This document shows positions 24,347 through 31,149 of a DNA stretch of 38,830 nucleotides, one piece after another; position 1 is the stretch's first letter; each line of letters opens with the position of its first letter. The stretch covers positions 1-38,830 of the forward strand of contig DVKD01000045.1 in the NCBI GenBank assembly GCA_018716285.1, in the 5' to 3' direction. The DNA is from Candidatus Merdivicinus faecavium (lineage in GTDB: Bacteria > Bacillota > Clostridia > Oscillospirales > Ruminococcaceae). The notes under the pieces are model-generated. The model did not search any database. It saw nothing but the letters and a program-made list of their open reading frames with translations, and was not told the DNA's origin. The position numbers and the translations under genes are program-made.

Positions 24347-25606
24347 CTATCGGATTTTGCGGCACTCGAGATAGTAGCGCTTGTCGCAGGCTTCCCCCAT
24401 CGAGAAGGTCTTGCGCGGCAGCGCCCCTTCGCAGATGACCGTTTTGAAGAGGTCCTGCTTGCCCATCGCGGGCAGAAGGAACCCGACCGCGCCTTTCTGC
24501 ACGAGCTCCCGGACGACCTCTTCCCCGTGGATATAATCGACGCGGCCCGGCCATTTATCCAGGTAATCGTCCAAAAATTCCTGCACGCTGCCGACCGCGA
24601 GGGTCCGCTCGGGATGGGCGATGGTCACGGCGCGCTCCCCTTCGCGGGTGAGCAGATAGACGGTCTGGGGCGGCTCGTTCCCCTGCCGGGAGGCGGCGTA
24701 CTGCTCAAATTCGGCGACAAGGCCGTCGCCGTCCGGCACAAAGGCGGCGCGGTGGATCGCCTCGAAGCGGAGGGAGGGGTCGTGGAGGTTGTTGAGCTCC
24801 ACCAGCGCGTAGCGGGCGGGGTGGGTTTCCCGCTCTGCGGGGCTTAGGAATTCCTTGATATTCTCCCAGCACTCCTTTGCGGAAGCGAGGGAGTGGTTGC
24901 CGTCCCCGACCGCGTAGAGGAGGACCGGCGCGTCCGGCGTCTGGTAGCGCGCGGCAAAGGCCGCCGGGTCGGCTAAGGCGGACAGCGCGTCCGCGACGAC
25001 GGCGTAAAGGCCGCGGTCGACCCGCCATCCGCTCACATGCCCGCCGTCCATCATGAGGTCGAAGTCATAGAGCTTCTGGCAGCTTGCCTTTTGGGCGGCG
25101 ACCGGCTCGATGACGGTCTGTTCCGCGTCGTCGATCAAAACGAGAATGTGCGGCATCTCGAGCGGCGCGTTCTCCCGGATGCGGACCCGCGCGGGGATGC
25201 GTGCGAGCACCGTCCCCTCGGTCGCGCGGACTAGGGAGGCCGAACCCTGGCGGTAGTCGTATTCTTCCAGGTCCAGAAGCCCGAGCAGCCCGCGGCGGAC
25301 CATGCCGTTATGAAGGGTCCGCTCGACATAAATCATGGAATCCGGATAGCTGGCAAACAGGCCCCTTTGGAGATAGTCCCGCATGGACTCGTTGATCTGG
25401 GCGATCTTTTCATTAAAATCAACCTTTTCGAGAAAGGCCTCCGGGAAAATCAGCTCTGCTGCGGAAGGCTTGCCGTCAACCAGTTCCTCTACTTTGCGCC
25501 AGTATTCCGGCTGGGAGGTGTACTGGTCGCAGGCAACCACGCTCCAGGTCTCCAGCGGGCAGTTGGGGAGGAGAATTTCACCGGGATAAAAGCCGATTTT
25601 TGACAT
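24347..25606 (-). CDS. DUF1015 family protein
   Basis: 419 residues. It matches the DUF1015 family from the opening GFYPGEILLPNCPLETWSVVACDQYTSQPEYW, the central YDFDLMMDGGHVSGW and the hallmark YAVGDGNHSLASAKECWE at about residue 230. The start at 25606 (MSKIGFYPG) has AAAGGA 8 bases upstream; the frame is open to 25660 but without an RBS. The biochemical role of the family is unknown; in other bacteria it is often found near phosphoglycerate dehydrogenase and serine genes, but none is adjacent here. No signal peptide or membrane segment is visible. Upstream lies the cloverleaf repeat region. Confidence 0.87.
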   Translation of the reverse strand: MSKIGFYPGEILLPNCPLETWSVVACDQYTSQPEYWRKVEELVDGKPSAAELIFPEAFLEKVDFNEKIAQINESMRDYLQRGLFASYPDSMIYVERTLHNGMVRRGLLGLLDLEEYDYRQGSASLVRATEGTVLARIPARVRIRENAPLEMPHILVLIDDAEQTVIEPVAAQKASCQKLYDFDLMMDGGHVSGWRVDRGLYAVVADALSALADPAAFAARYQTPDAPVLLYAVGDGNHSLASAKECWENIKEFLSPAERETHPARYALVELNNLHDPSLRFEAIHRAAFVPDGDGLVAEFEQYAASRQGNEPPQTVYLLTREGERAVTIAHPERTLAVGSVQEFLDDYLDKWPGRVDYIHGEEVVRELVQKGAVGFLLPAMGKQDLFKTVICEGALPRKTFSMGEACDKRYYLECRKIR

Positions 25607-25654
25607 ATTGCTCGTCCTTTCATAGGGGGATTTTGCCGATTGACATCTTGGCGA

Positions 25655-25687
25655 TACCATGCGGCGGAAAAGCCGGTATGGTACAAT
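25655..25687 (+). promoter_or_regulatory. Dyad with extended -10 promoter facing the cloverleaf repeats
   Basis: TACCAT (25655-25660) and ATGGTA (25678-25683) form an imperfect inverted repeat extended by GC-rich inner pairs. Its right arm overlaps TGG-TACAAT (TACAAT 25682-25687), an extended -10 box on the + strand with no good -35. Transcription from it would start inside the first cloverleaf unit, so its role is uncertain. Confidence 0.33.
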
Positions 25688-25769
25688 GTTTTTAAAAGGA
25701 ATCCGACAGGATTCGGAGGGGGACAGAGTCCCCCGCAGGCTTTCACAGAAAGCCTTTTGAGGTTATTAT
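25683..25769 (+). repeat. Cloverleaf repeat, copy A (87 bp)
   Basis: Copy B at 25845-25931 matches it with 5 differences in 87 bases. It folds with an outer stem (25691-25698 with 25754-25761) and three arms: GAATCC-GACA-GGATTC, a 7-base-pair GGGGGAC/GTCCCCC arm and a GCTTTC/GAAAGC arm. Two outer-stem differences from copy B (T for C at 25691 and 25693) keep pairing as G-U in + strand RNA; the other three differences fall in loops or the junction. Not a tRNA: there is no T-loop or CCA end. Open frames across it are by-products. Confidence 0.85.
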
Positions 25770-25845
25770 TCTGCGGGCAAAAATCCGGCAGGATTTTGGG
25801 CGGGCAGGGCCCGCAAGTTTTGCGGGAGCAAAACCGGACGCAGAA
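25769..25845 (+). repeat. Diverged cloverleaf repeat, middle copy (77 bp)
   Basis: The architecture is the same with a different sequence: outer stem TTCTGCG (25769-25775) with CGCAGAA (25839-25845); arm 1 AAAATCC-GGCA-GGATTTT (25780-25797); arm 2 GCGGGC-AGG-GCCCGC (25800-25814); arm 3 GTTTTGC-GGGA-GCAAAAC (25817-25834). Arm 1 keeps the core ATCCG-CAGGAT of the outer copies, while arms 2 and 3 have changed on both sides of each stem. Confidence 0.75.
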
Positions 25846-25931
25846 CAATGTTCTCAAAAGGAATCCGACAGGATTCAGAGGGGGACAAAGTCCCCCGCAG
25901 GCTTTCGCAGAAAGCCTTTTGAGGTTATTAT
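25845..25931 (+). repeat. Cloverleaf repeat, copy B (87 bp)
   Basis: About 94% identical to copy A. The outer stem CTCAAAAG (25853-25860) pairs fully with CTTTTGAG (25916-25923); the arms are at 25861-25876, 25880-25896 and 25901-25915. It starts at the base where the middle unit ends. From 25932 to 26007 there is only AT-rich sequence before the trxB promoter. Confidence 0.85.
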
Positions 25932-26007
25932 ACCATCCCTTCCCGCAAAAGTCACGTCGAAACAGTGAATTCGATGCAAAAATCTGAATTTTTTTTCCAT
26001 CTTCCGG

Positions 26008-26102: not shown

Positions 26103-27002
26103 ATGACCGATCTATGCATTATCGGCGCGGGACCTGCCGGCTTTACCGCCGCGATTTACGCGGTGCGGGCGGGACTGTCCGTCCGCCTGTTTGAAAGCAG
26201 CCTTTACGGCGGGCAGATCGTCAACACGCCGGACGTCGACAACTATCCCGGCCTGCCGGGCCTGTCCGGTGCGGAGCTTGCGATGAAGCTTTACGAGCAC
26301 GCCGCCCGCTTCGGGGTGGAGCCGGAAACGCGCACCCTGACCCGTGTCGCGCTTCACGGGGAGGTCAAAACGCTTTACGCGGGAGAGGAGGCGATCCCCT
26401 GCCGCAGCGTCATCATCGCGACCGGCGCTTCCCACCGGAAGCTCGGCTGCCCGGGCGAGGAGCGTCTGACCGGCCGCGGCGTTTCCTACTGCGCGGCCTG
26501 CGACGGAGCGTTTTTCCGCGGCAAGACGGTCGCGGTAAACGGCGGCGGCAATACGGCGCTGGAGGACGCCCTCTTCCTCGCCAACGCCTGCGAGAAGGTG
26601 TACCTCATCCACCGCCGGGAGGAATTCCGCGCCGACCGCGCCAATATCGATGCGGTCAAAAAGCGGGCGAACATCGAATTCCTTCTCAGCCGCACGGTCA
26701 AAGAGATCCGCGGCGAGCAGAAGGTCGAGGAGATCGTCCTGTCGGGTACGGCCGGTCAGGAGGAGGTCACGCTGCCGGTTTCCGCCCTCTTCATAGCGGT
26801 CGGACTCCAGCCGAATACCGCCCTTTTTGAGGGGCAGGTGGCTTTGGAGGGCGGCTATATCAAGGCGGGAGAGGACTGCCGTACCAACGTCCCCGGCGTT
26901 TTTGCGGCGGGAGACGTCCGCACCAAGGATGTCCGCCAGCTGATCACAGCGGCCGCCGACGGCGCGGTCGCGGCCATTGCGGCCGGGAAATATCTGGCGT
27001 AG
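26103..27002 (+). CDS. trxB: Thioredoxin reductase (NADPH, FAD)
   Basis: 299 residues. It transfers electrons from NADPH via FAD and a redox disulfide to thioredoxin. Motifs in order: FAD-binding IIGAGPAGFTAAIYAVRAGL; YGGQIVNTPDVDNYPG; the redox-active CAACDG at about residue 133; the NADPH site VNGGGNTALEDA; HRREEFRAD; and the C-terminal GVFAAGDVRTKDVRQLITAAADG. HRR fits NADPH preference. RBS GGAGGG lies 9-14 bases before the ATG. No thioredoxin gene is adjacent. A 64-residue gene follows 65 bases downstream. Confidence 0.95.
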   Translation: MTDLCIIGAGPAGFTAAIYAVRAGLSVRLFESSLYGGQIVNTPDVDNYPGLPGLSGAELAMKLYEHAARFGVEPETRTLTRVALHGEVKTLYAGEEAIPCRSVIIATGASHRKLGCPGEERLTGRGVSYCAACDGAFFRGKTVAVNGGGNTALEDALFLANACEKVYLIHRREEFRADRANIDAVKKRANIEFLLSRTVKEIRGEQKVEEIVLSGTAGQEEVTLPVSALFIAVGLQPNTALFEGQVALEGGYIKAGEDCRTNVPGVFAAGDVRTKDVRQLITAAADGAVAAIAAGKYLA

Positions 27003-28918: not shown

Positions 28919-29162
28919 AAATGGAAAACGTGATGAAGGAAAGAGTACCCTCCTTTCGGACGCGCAGAGAGTTTCCGGCTGGTGTAAGGAAACAGGAAGA
29001 AGGCGGGGAAGATGGTTCCGGAACGGTGCGTTCGAGGAGGCTTCTTAGGGCGCGACAGGTCCGCCTGTTACAGCGGTTTGAGGTTTTCCGCCCCCGCGCG
29101 GAGAACGAAGCGAAGTGGTACCACGGATCTCCCCGTCTTCTGCAAACAGAAGACGGTTTTTT
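28919..29162 (+). promoter_or_regulatory. T-box riboswitch of metG (methionyl-tRNA sensing)
   Basis: An antiterminator with all parts visible: GAAG (29112-29115), the 7-base bulge TGGTACC (29116-29122), ACGG (29123-29126), a 6-base loop, CCGT (29133-29136) and CTTC (29137-29140). The bulge TGGT can pair with the ACCA end of uncharged tRNA. Stem I features upstream are AGTA (28944-28947) and AGAGAG (28966-28971); ATG at 29012-29014, preceded by GAA, is the best candidate specifier codon, matching methionine. The antiterminator shares bases with the terminator at 29133-29162. Confidence 0.92.
29133..29162 (+). terminator. Regulated terminator of the metG T-box
   Basis: A perfect 10-base-pair stem CCGTCTTCTG / CAGAAGACGG (29133-29142, 29147-29156) with loop CAAA, then TTTTTT. 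Its left arm is also the right side of the T-box antiterminator, so the two are mutually exclusive. Confidence 0.92.
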
Positions 29163-29202
29163 CGTTTGTGCCGCAGAATTTACCGAGAAAGGAAATGGGA
29201 TT

Positions 29203-31149
29203 ATGGATCAGAAAAAGTTTTACATTACCACTGCTATCGCCTACACCTCCCGCAAGCCGCACATCGGCAACACCTATGAGATCGTGCTGACCGACGCCAT
29301 CGCCCGGATGAAGCGGATGCAGGGCTACGACGTCTTCTTCTGCACCGGCACCGACGAGCACGGGCAGAAGATCGAGGAGATTGCCAGGGAAGCCGGCGTG
29401 ACCCCCAAAGCATACGTCGACCAGGTCTCCAGCGAGGTCCGCCGCATCTGGGATGCGATGAACACCACTTACGACTATTTCATCCGCACCACCGACGATT
29501 ACCATGAAAAGGTCGTGCAGAAGATCTTCAAAAAGCTCTACGAGCAGGGCGACATCTACAAGGGCGAGTACTCCGGGATGTACTGCACCCCCTGCGAGTC
29601 CTTCTGGACCGAAAGCCAGCTCAAGGACGGCTGCTGCCCCGACTGCGGGAGGCCGGTCAAGCCGGCGAAGGAGGAAGCCTACTTCTTCCGGATGAGCAAG
29701 TATCAGGACCGGCTGATGAAGCACATCGAGGAGCATCCCGACTTCATCGTCCCCGAATCCCGCAAGAAAGAGATGATCAACAACTTCTTAAAGCCCGGCC
29801 TGCAGGACCTCTGCGTCTCCCGCACCTCCTTCAAATGGGGCATCCCGGTCGATTTTGACGACCGGCACGTCGTCTATGTCTGGCTTGACGCGCTGACCAA
29901 CTATATCACCGCCCTGGGCTACGACCCCGACCACATCGGTGAAAACTACAAGAAGTACTGGCCTGCCGACGTCCATGTCATCGGCAAGGACATCCTGCGC
30001 TTCCACACCATCTACTGGCCCATCTTCCTGATGGCGCTCGGCCTACCGCTGCCCAAGCAGGTCTTCGGGCACCCGTGGCTCCTCTTCGCCTCGGACAAGA
30101 TGAGCAAGTCGAAGGGCAATGTCATCTACGCCGACGACCTGGTCCGGCTGTTCGGGGTCGACGCGGTCCGCTACTACCTGCTTTCCGCCATGCCCTACGC
30201 GCAGGACGGCAGCATCACCTACGAGATGTTCATCACCAAATATAACGCCGAGCTCGCCAACACCCTGGGTAACCTCGTCAACCGCACCGTCGCGATGGCG
30301 AACAAGTACTTCGGCGGCGAAATCGACGCGGCTTCGGCCGAAAACGAGCTGGATGAGGACCTGAAAAATACGGCGCTGTCCGCCCTTTCCGGCGTTGTGT
30401 CCGCGATGGAGGAGTATAAGACCGCCGATGCTTTACAGAAGATCATCGCCCTGGCGCAGCGCTCCAACAAATATATCGACGAGACCATGCCCTGGGCGCT
30501 CGCCAAGGATGAGGCGCAGCATGCCCGTTTGAAAGTTGTCCTCTCCAACCTGATCGAGTCCATCCGCTATCTGGGCGTCCTGCTCTCCCCCTTCCTGCCG
30601 GACACCTCCGCCTCCATTCTGGAGCAGATCAACGCGCAGGGCAGCGACCTGGCCTCTTTGGAGAACTTCGGCGCTGGTGCAGCCCGCAAGGTCGGCACAG
30701 CGAAGGCGCTGTTTGCCCGCCTGGATGAAGCGGAGACCATGAAGCGGATCGACGCGGAGATCATCCAGCCGCAGATCGCCGCCGCCAAGGCGGAGCAGAA
30801 GGAGGAAAAGCCGGAAGGGGTCGCCCTGATCGGCATCGAGGACTTTGCGAAGGTCGAGCTGCGCGCCGCCAAGATCCTCTCCTGCGAAAAGCTCAAAAAA
30901 TCCAAGAAGCTGCTCCGGCTCATTGTGAACGACGGGGACGGCGAGCGGCAGGTCCTTTCCGGCATCGCCCAGTGGTATGCGCCGGAGGAGCTGGTCGGCA
31001 GGACCATCGTTCTCGTCGCCAACCTCAAGCCCGCCAAGCTCTGCGGGGAGGAAAGCTGCGGAATGATCCTGGCTGCCGACTGCCCGGACGGCGACGTCAA
31101 GGTCCTTTTCCTCGACGACGCCATCCCCGCCGGTGCGAAAATCCGCTGA
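29203..31149 (+). CDS. metG: Methionyl-tRNA synthetase with C-terminal tRNA-binding domain
   Basis: 648 residues. It charges tRNA-Met. A class I core with the HIGH-type motif YTSRKPHIGNTYE, a zinc knuckle with CTPC and CCPDC, and KMSKSKGN at about residue 298. An anticodon-binding domain follows, and an EMAP/Arc1p-like tRNA-binding domain from about residue 545 (IEDFAKVELRAAKILSCEK, VLSGIAQWYAPEEL). The ATG at 29203 begins MDQKKFYITTAIAYTS and follows AAAGGA; the open frame back to 28921 is the T-box leader and is not coding. Expression is expected to rise when methionyl-tRNA is short. tatD follows 18 bases downstream. Confidence 0.97.
   Translation: MDQKKFYITTAIAYTSRKPHIGNTYEIVLTDAIARMKRMQGYDVFFCTGTDEHGQKIEEIAREAGVTPKAYVDQVSSEVRRIWDAMNTTYDYFIRTTDDYHEKVVQKIFKKLYEQGDIYKGEYSGMYCTPCESFWTESQLKDGCCPDCGRPVKPAKEEAYFFRMSKYQDRLMKHIEEHPDFIVPESRKKEMINNFLKPGLQDLCVSRTSFKWGIPVDFDDRHVVYVWLDALTNYITALGYDPDHIGENYKKYWPADVHVIGKDILRFHTIYWPIFLMALGLPLPKQVFGHPWLLFASDKMSKSKGNVIYADDLVRLFGVDAVRYYLLSAMPYAQDGSITYEMFITKYNAELANTLGNLVNRTVAMANKYFGGEIDAASAENELDEDLKNTALSALSGVVSAMEEYKTADALQKIIALAQRSNKYIDETMPWALAKDEAQHARLKVVLSNLIESIRYLGVLLSPFLPDTSASILEQINAQGSDLASLENFGAGAARKVGTAKALFARLDEAETMKRIDAEIIQPQIAAAKAEQKEEKPEGVALIGIEDFAKVELRAAKILSCEKLKKSKKLLRLIVNDGDGERQVLSGIAQWYAPEELVGRTIVLVANLKPAKLCGEESCGMILAADCPDGDVKVLFLDDAIPAGAKIR

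What the first reader, a model, noticed from the sequence alone, without database searches (positions are those of the whole stretch)
25683..25931. Three tandem cloverleaf-folding elements, two near-identical and one with the same shape but a different sequence
Seen directly: each 77-87 bp unit has an outer stem closing three short hairpin arms. Copies A and B differ at 5 of 87 positions: two outer-stem changes convert G-C to G-U in + strand RNA, and three fall in loops or the junction, so none breaks a pair. The middle unit keeps all four stems while arms 2 and 3 and the outer stem have changed on both sides, which looks like covariation. I know no named family it matches. It may be a structured RNA, a multi-hairpin mobile repeat like REP/BOX elements, or a recombination substrate.
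Basis: partly seen in the sequence, partly recalled or inferred. Interest (0 to 1): 0.8.

Follow-up and report, generated by a model that had tools for sequence, protein, structure and literature searches.

The report
Mobile hairpin repeats behind bacterial promoters
Small, tightly folding DNA repeats have spread in many gut Oscillospirales genomes by settling just behind the core (-10) box of gene promoters, so that the message would begin with a stack of hairpins; how they move is unknown.

Summary
The three tandem cloverleaf units are real (fold z -4.2 to -6.6) and belong to a larger insertion (about 25653-25935). On the - strand it starts right after the -10 box (25927-25932) of a DUF1015 gene's promoter, with a -35-like hexamer 17 bp further out; three congeners have that promoter without the insertion. 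Repeats with the same border occur in Anaerotruncus, Neglectibacter, Intestinimonas and other genomes: 121 and 135 border matches in two Anaerotruncus genomes, reversed control 0. Of 95 terminal borders, 43 have a TTGACA-like hexamer 16-18 bp outside (11.4 expected). The next gene is co-directional in 17 of 19 and 16 of 20 arrays. Three empty sites between two Anaerotruncus genomes put the insertion directly 3' of the -10. Border arms covary, partly with variant -10 boxes, though stricter tests are weak. No Rfam family, phage copy or mover was found. Best reading: a MITE-like structured repeat settled behind promoters. Movement by an unknown trans-acting enzyme, and choice of target through the -10, are inferred.

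The parts
25950..25955 (-). -35-like hexamer (GTGACT) of the promoter that reads into the array
   Evidence: 17 bp from the -10; same place as ATGACA in the orthologous promoters of G001, G003 and G004; class statistic
25923..25935 (-). promoter-side border TGGTATAATAACC; its TATAAT (25927-25932) is the -10 box of the DUF1015 gene
   Evidence: coordinates; orthologous -10 without insertion
25845..25931 (-).
   Evidence: (folded as 25847-25933)
25770..25846 (-). B-type cloverleaf unit, same shape, different sequence
25683..25769 (-). second A-type cloverleaf unit
   Evidence: sequence; same place and form as the end hairpin of Anaerotruncus units
25653..25662 (-). gene-side border GCATGGTATC, a degenerate direct repeat of the -10 border
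   Evidence: sequence
24347..25606 (-). DUF1015 protein gene (419 aa); the array lies between it and its predicted promoter
   Evidence: PF06245 E 1e-55; start ATG preceded by AAAGGA
26103..27002 (+). divergent gene, Pyr_redox_2 (thioredoxin-reductase-like by my reading), on the other side of the promoter
   Evidence: PF07992 E 2e-50

Best explanation
The array is a set of small non-coding mobile repeats (MITE-like palindromic units of about 110-160 bp) that sit, in one orientation, immediately 3' of the -10 hexamer of promoters. SHOWN: copies are dispersed; presence and number differ between genomes; at the empty sites seen the insertion point is directly behind a -10; a -10-like border is carried at both ends; the downstream gene is usually co-directional; the border strand can pair with the unit on either side; the gene-side end and its inner arm mostly match. 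INFERRED: the units are moved in trans by an unidentified recombinase that recognises the folded single strand, and the target is chosen through the -10, possibly because its non-template strand is single-stranded in the open promoter complex and can pair with the unit's complementary arm. Tandem arrays then grow by further insertion at the repeated border or by unequal recombination. Consequence for the host (inferred): the mRNA starts inside the repeat and carries a stack of hairpins, and units whose end reads TGGTATAAT add further extended -10 boxes, so expression may change with copy number. In the window the inner border reads CAGAATAATAACC, a poor -10.
For: Copy number: 25 model matches to A units and 22 to B units in the window genome, some being the other strand of the same copy; 121, 135 and 72 border matches (a palindromic unit can count twice) in A. 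colihominis DSM 17241, JM4-15 and Marseille-P2935, reversed control 0, 0 and 1. Position: TTGACA-like hexamer (at least 4/6) at spacing 16-18 in 43 of 95 terminal borders against 11.4 +- 3.2 (max 22 in 1000 shuffles), peak at 17. Orientation: 17 of 19 (G061) and 16 of 20 (G062; one without a downstream gene in view; in 3 of the 16 the ORF is over 1 kb away) co-directional. Empty sites: L246 vs L265, L267 vs L245 and L269 vs L249; window promoter vs G001, G003, G004. Arms matching -10 variants such as TGATAAAAT, and covariation in 18 end hairpins.
Against: No mover found: Y1 transposase gave no match in either Anaerotruncus genome, IS110 none in G000, G006, G062, G145 and G286; other transposase families were not searched. 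52 of 95 borders have no hexamer of 4/6 at 16-18 bp. A broader test anchored on the H1 palindrome, which mixes both orientations, is weak: 45 of 333 vs 31.0 +- 5.0, shuffles reach 51. The gene-side end is not a plain copy of the target: 8 units have P=TATAAT but D=TATCAT. The arm test anchored on loop and context only is borderline: 18 unique arm pairs, 8 of 25 deviations compensated and 16 not, pairing 0.874 against a shuffle maximum of the same 0.874; the 18 hairpins were picked by eye. The window's A/B units share with the H1-type units only the ~18 bp border, the place and the architecture: the A model finds nothing outside the genus in 61 genomes, and the H1 pattern has 0 matches in G000.
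Confidence: 0.6

Rival explanations
1. Host regulatory leader: the arrays are cis-acting leader RNAs (attenuator- or stability-type) kept because they help the gene, and spread by recombination rather than as parasites.
For: Place in the presumed 5' leader and co-directional gene; alternative pairing of the border strand; conserved cloverleaf.
Against: The same locus is filled in one species and empty in another; pairing across the -10 cannot form in RNA started there; wobble pairs show no bias towards the transcript strand, and in the outer stems favour the opposite strand. Whether the downstream genes share a function was not tested.
Confidence: 0.2
2. Guide-bearing site-specific element: the arm complementary to the -10 acts as the target guide, comparable in logic to IS200/IS605 guides or IS110 bridge RNAs (recalled).
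For: Terminal promoter copies TGATAAAAT in L086, L269 and L278 go with matching arms (also inside L268), and the empty ortholog of L269 has TGATAAAAT natively; a unit circle or tandem junction TGGTATAAT|AACC would itself be an extended -10.
Against: Known enzymes of those kinds do not track the repeat; arms could match by common descent of one subfamily or by later correction; several units with a variant promoter copy keep the usual arm (L122, L123, H arm of L326).
Confidence: 0.25
3. Ordinary REP/BIME- or BOX-type intergenic repeats with no target choice; those behind promoters are simply the ones tolerated.
For: Multi-copy, palindromic, modular, intergenic; BOX is likewise modular (passages of PMC3049150).
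Against: The insertion point is the base behind the -10 in the empty sites seen and the -35 peak is at 17 bp; tolerance alone would not give a fixed base. But only a handful of empty sites were seen, and the border pattern used to collect copies itself contains TGGTATAAT.
Confidence: 0.15
4. Transcription terminator or attenuator array.
For: GC-rich hairpins between promoter and gene.
Against: By eye the sequence shows no T-run behind the hairpins on either strand (the terminator scan was not run); no Rfam match at gathering score in the array.
Confidence: 0.03

Closest known systems
BOX / RUP / SPRITE repeats of Streptococcus pneumoniae (PMC3049150; passages seen)
   Same: Small, modular, multi-copy, strongly folding, thought parasitic; likely to affect co-transcribed genes.
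   Different: The passages report over-representation between convergent genes (and a slight one between divergent genes) and do not tell of a fixed place behind the -10; here arrays sit behind -10 boxes and carry a -10-like border at both ends.
Correia elements (CREE) of Neisseria (review PMC10969869; passages seen)
   Same: MITE with sigma70-like promoter sequences, mostly immediately upstream of genes; one copy lies immediately downstream of the mtrCDE promoter.
   Different: Delimited by 26 bp inverted repeats (passage of PMC3049150) and not described in these passages as targeting the -10; here units are tandem, in one orientation, with direct-repeat borders.
REP/BIME with RAYT (Y1) transposases
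   Same: Palindromic intergenic repeats in composite arrays.
   Different: No Y1 match in either Anaerotruncus genome, which hold 121 and 135 border matches.
IS200/IS605 and IS110 (bridge RNA) elements (recalled)
   Same: Target or end recognition through base pairing; insertion 3' of a short target; promoter made at a junction.
   Different: Enzyme distribution does not match; no gene was seen in the units.

Membership tests
MITE (miniature inverted-repeat transposable element) | short, non-coding, multi-copy, strongly base-paired | tested here: met
MITE (miniature inverted-repeat transposable element) | presence/absence at orthologous sites | tested here: met
   3 clean empty sites between parts of two Anaerotruncus genomes
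MITE (miniature inverted-repeat transposable element) | target site duplication | tested here: inconclusive
   TGGTATAAT-like direct repeats at both ends, but the two copies can differ, and the gene-side copy in L267 differs from the native -10
MITE (miniature inverted-repeat transposable element) | terminal inverted repeats shared with a transposase-bearing element | tested here: inconclusive
   borders are palindromic; no autonomous parent was met; only Y1 and IS110 were searched
REP/RAYT | Y1 (PF01797) transposase in the genome | tested here: not met
   no match in G061, G062, G003, G006; 1 in G000, 9 in G063, 1 below cut-off in G001
IS110-type RNA-guided element | DEDD IS110 transposase in the genome | tested here: not met
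   over cut-off in 3 of 12 genomes (G001, G003, G061); below cut-off only in G063, G135, G185, G303; none in G000, G006, G062, G145, G286
BOX element | boxA-boxB-boxC modules of pneumococcus | not tested
   only the architecture was compared, with passages of PMC3049150
Known Rfam RNA | match at gathering score | tested here: not met
   none in the array nor in the units of 8 other loci; best weak hit PrrB_RsmZ, 20 bits against a cut-off of 44, E 0.013
Intrinsic terminator | hairpin followed by a T-run | tested here: not met
   sequence read by eye on both strands; the terminator scan was not run

The most novel reading that the evidence does not exclude
A promoter-seeking mobile element whose own arm is a guide: it pairs with the -10 box, single-stranded in the open RNA polymerase complex, and inserts right behind it, so transcription itself marks the landing site; subfamilies with changed arms (TGATAAAAT type) land at promoters with the matching -10.
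Probability: 0.22. Interest if true: 0.9.

Novelty: new variant of a known kind. Interest (0 to 1): 0.7.

Why it matters
A repeat that settles behind -10 boxes, with 19 and 20 oriented arrays in the fetched parts of two Anaerotruncus genomes alone, would rewrite the mRNA 5' ends of many genes in common gut bacteria. It would mark promoters in uncultured Oscillospirales, offer a source of expression differences through array length, and, if insertion is tied to open promoter complexes or to pairing with the -10, make a link between transcription and transposition directly testable.

Tried and rejected
tRNA/tmRNA: none in the window. Rfam: nothing at gathering score in the array or in units of 8 other loci; PrrB_RsmZ at 20 bits is below its cut-off of 44 and taken as chance. 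Y1/RAYT and IS110 as movers: distribution does not fit. Phage vector: no match in phages for the window array or one Anaerotruncus array; the exact H1 pattern 0 in viral contigs; the four viral contigs show no unit around the 18-mer (by eye). Plasmids: none for the window array, one record for the Anaerotruncus array, A. colihominis VE303-02, where the next listed gene is convergent, an exception to the rule. Site 2 turned out not to be this element. Simple target duplication as the whole story: rejected because P and D can differ. Retroposition from a transcript started at +1: disfavoured because the first foreign base follows the -10 directly. Weak or negative tests: and some measures (there, pair types reached by 29/500 shuffles). 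Literature: searches listed no paper on these repeats that I recognised; titles and abstract starts were seen, plus passages of PMC3049150 and PMC10969869.

Full report
WHAT IS THERE. The window is the whole of contig C30 of an unnamed 2.66 Mb assembly. Between the start of a DUF1015 gene on the - strand (24347-25606; PF06245, E 1e-55) and a divergent Pyr_redox_2 gene (26103-27002) lie the three units. The A units 25683-25769 and 25845-25931 differ at 5 of 87 positions. All three units fold better than any of 200 shuffles, on both strands. A fourth, short hairpin unit lies at 25654-25684, so the whole insertion is about 25653-25935.

COPIES. The array finds 16 blastn matches in its own genome, several at contig ends, as expected of an assembly broken by repeats. 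A covariance model of A units gives 25 matches (15 with E below 1e-14; some are the other strand of one copy), one of B units 22. A and B units alternate, up to seven in a row. Within the genus 4 of 7 genomes, own included, have DNA matches; with the A model 4 of 61 genomes, all of the same genus.

A WIDER FAMILY. Counting also the own genus and borders with up to two mismatches, 155 of 207 borders have a unit-like motif within 130 bp. Many are in tandem at 90-120 bp. In these the A unit is reduced to one hairpin, GGTATAATAACCGC-NNN-GCGGTTATTATACC (H1), followed by a middle hairpin and an end hairpin such as ATTATACCATG...CATGGTATAAT (H3). H1 is found in 17 of 295 genomes of the window's order, 11 of 149 genera, reversed control 0; in a phylum sample it is in 1 of 398, and that one is of the same order. 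The link between the window's A/B units and the H1-type units rests on the shared border, place and architecture, not on the interiors; this is an inference.

PLACE. Read on the - strand, the window's right border is TGGTATAATAACC. Both sides of the region were matched in three of the six congeners. None of the three has the array: G001 and G003 have ATGACA-N17-TATAAT (TGATATAATAACG), G004 ATGACA-N17-TATACT; the window has GTGACT-N17-TATAAT and then the array. Over 95 unique terminal borders (of 102 collected; the rest were duplicates or lacked TATAAT at that place), 43 have a hexamer with at least 4 of 6 matches to TTGACA at spacing 16-18, against 11.4 +- 3.2 in shuffled flanks, with the peak at 17. 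52 of 95 do not. A second test anchored on H1 regardless of orientation is weak (45 of 333 vs 31.0 +- 5.0, shuffles reach 51), and borders preceded by an end hairpin, that is inside arrays, show no excess (4 of 92 vs 9.6). In the stretches fetched from two Anaerotruncus genomes, the gene downstream of the array reads in the same direction in 17 of 19 and 16 of 20 arrays (simple ORF calls; in three of the 16 the ORF is more than 1 kb away). The cruder count over terminal borders is 65 of the 85 with an ORF on that side, of 102.

EMPTY SITES. DSM 17241 (G061) and JM4-15 (G062) were compared over the fetched parts only; 10 of 26 G061 arrays had both flanks in the fetched part of G062. Three sites are cleanly filled in one and empty in the other. 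(1) L246 vs L265: empty TTTACA-N17-TATAAT, then GATTGCAG; filled ACTGGTATAAT, two units, CATGGTATAAT, then GATTTCAA. (2) L267 vs L245: native TGATATAAT kept on the promoter side; the gene-side end is CATGGTATTAT. (3) L269 vs L249: native TGATAAAAT; the filled site has TGATAAAAT at both ends, and the inner arm of the end hairpin reads ATTTTATCAT. Three further pairs aligned, and L261 vs L237, are filled in both with different units. A 116 bp difference also inspected (site 2) is unrelated sequence.

PAIRING. In the unit types seen, the border strand can pair upstream (A outer stem or H1) or downstream (B outer stem or H3). Eighteen end hairpins from different loci, picked by eye, are 99.4% paired over 10 arm pairs with 15 double-change cells, 0 of 500 shuffles as high. 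A set chosen only by loop and context is borderline: 18 unique pairs, 8 of 25 deviations compensated, 16 not. Terminal promoter copies TGATAAAAT go with matching arms in L086, L269 and L278 (and inside L268), but arm and promoter copy also differ in several units. H1 spans the -10, upstream of the expected start, so this pairing cannot form in a transcript begun there. In the window's genus the hairpins' wobble pairs show no strand bias (G-U 10 vs A-C 8; 3 vs 7), while the outer stems have more G-U on the + strand (41 vs 13; 24 vs 1), which is opposite to the predicted transcript; most of these are a few positions that never vary. This speaks for a constraint on DNA, or on the opposite strand, rather than on the leader RNA.

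MECHANISM. I take the units to be MITE-like elements moved in trans. Y1 and IS110 transposases do not track them, and no autonomous parent was met. Insertion directly behind the -10, in one orientation, with a -10-like end carried along, would fit an enzyme that acts on single-stranded hairpins and lands in the open promoter complex; this step is inference. Regular arrays such as nine units at 110 bp in L253 suggest growth in place as well.

NOVELTY. Rfam has no such family at gathering score. Six paper searches listed no description that I recognised; the library is partial. BOX and Correia elements are the nearest kinds in the passages seen; I know of none fixed behind the -10.

Noticed in passing
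window 28924-29143 (+): T-box leader (RF00230, 98.3 bits), overlapping the start of a mechanical ORF at 28921-31149.
   Followed up: no
L248, L249, L256 (G061), L095, L162 (G062), just outside the promoter-side border: A second short palindrome, of the form CAAGCCCGAAWGGGCTTG, recurs directly upstream of several array borders; possibly another repeat family that uses the same place.
   Followed up: no
L016 about 1099, L018 about 899, L026 (-) about 1563: A units that have lost one or two whole hairpins but keep the outer stem, as if hairpins were removed cleanly.
   Followed up: no
L253 3886-4881 (G061:C1, about 395.9-396.8 kb): Array of nine units at 110 bp period, about 1 kb long, 29 bp before a 1072-aa ORF.
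   Followed up: partly
L326 (A. colihominis VE303-02 plasmid NZ_CP094683.1, 8251-8380): One unit on a 52 kb plasmid whose promoter copy, inner arm and end all carry TACAAT; a DUF1015 gene lies nearby, the same domain as the gene behind the window's array (perhaps chance).
   Followed up: partly
spacing 29-31 from the border TATAAT: A smaller secondary peak of TTGACA-like hexamers about 30 bp from the border, unexplained.
   Followed up: no
G063 (Ruminococcaceae bacterium Marseille-P2935): Nine Y1 transposase matches, four of them with stop codons inside, in a genome that also holds 72 border matches.
   Followed up: no
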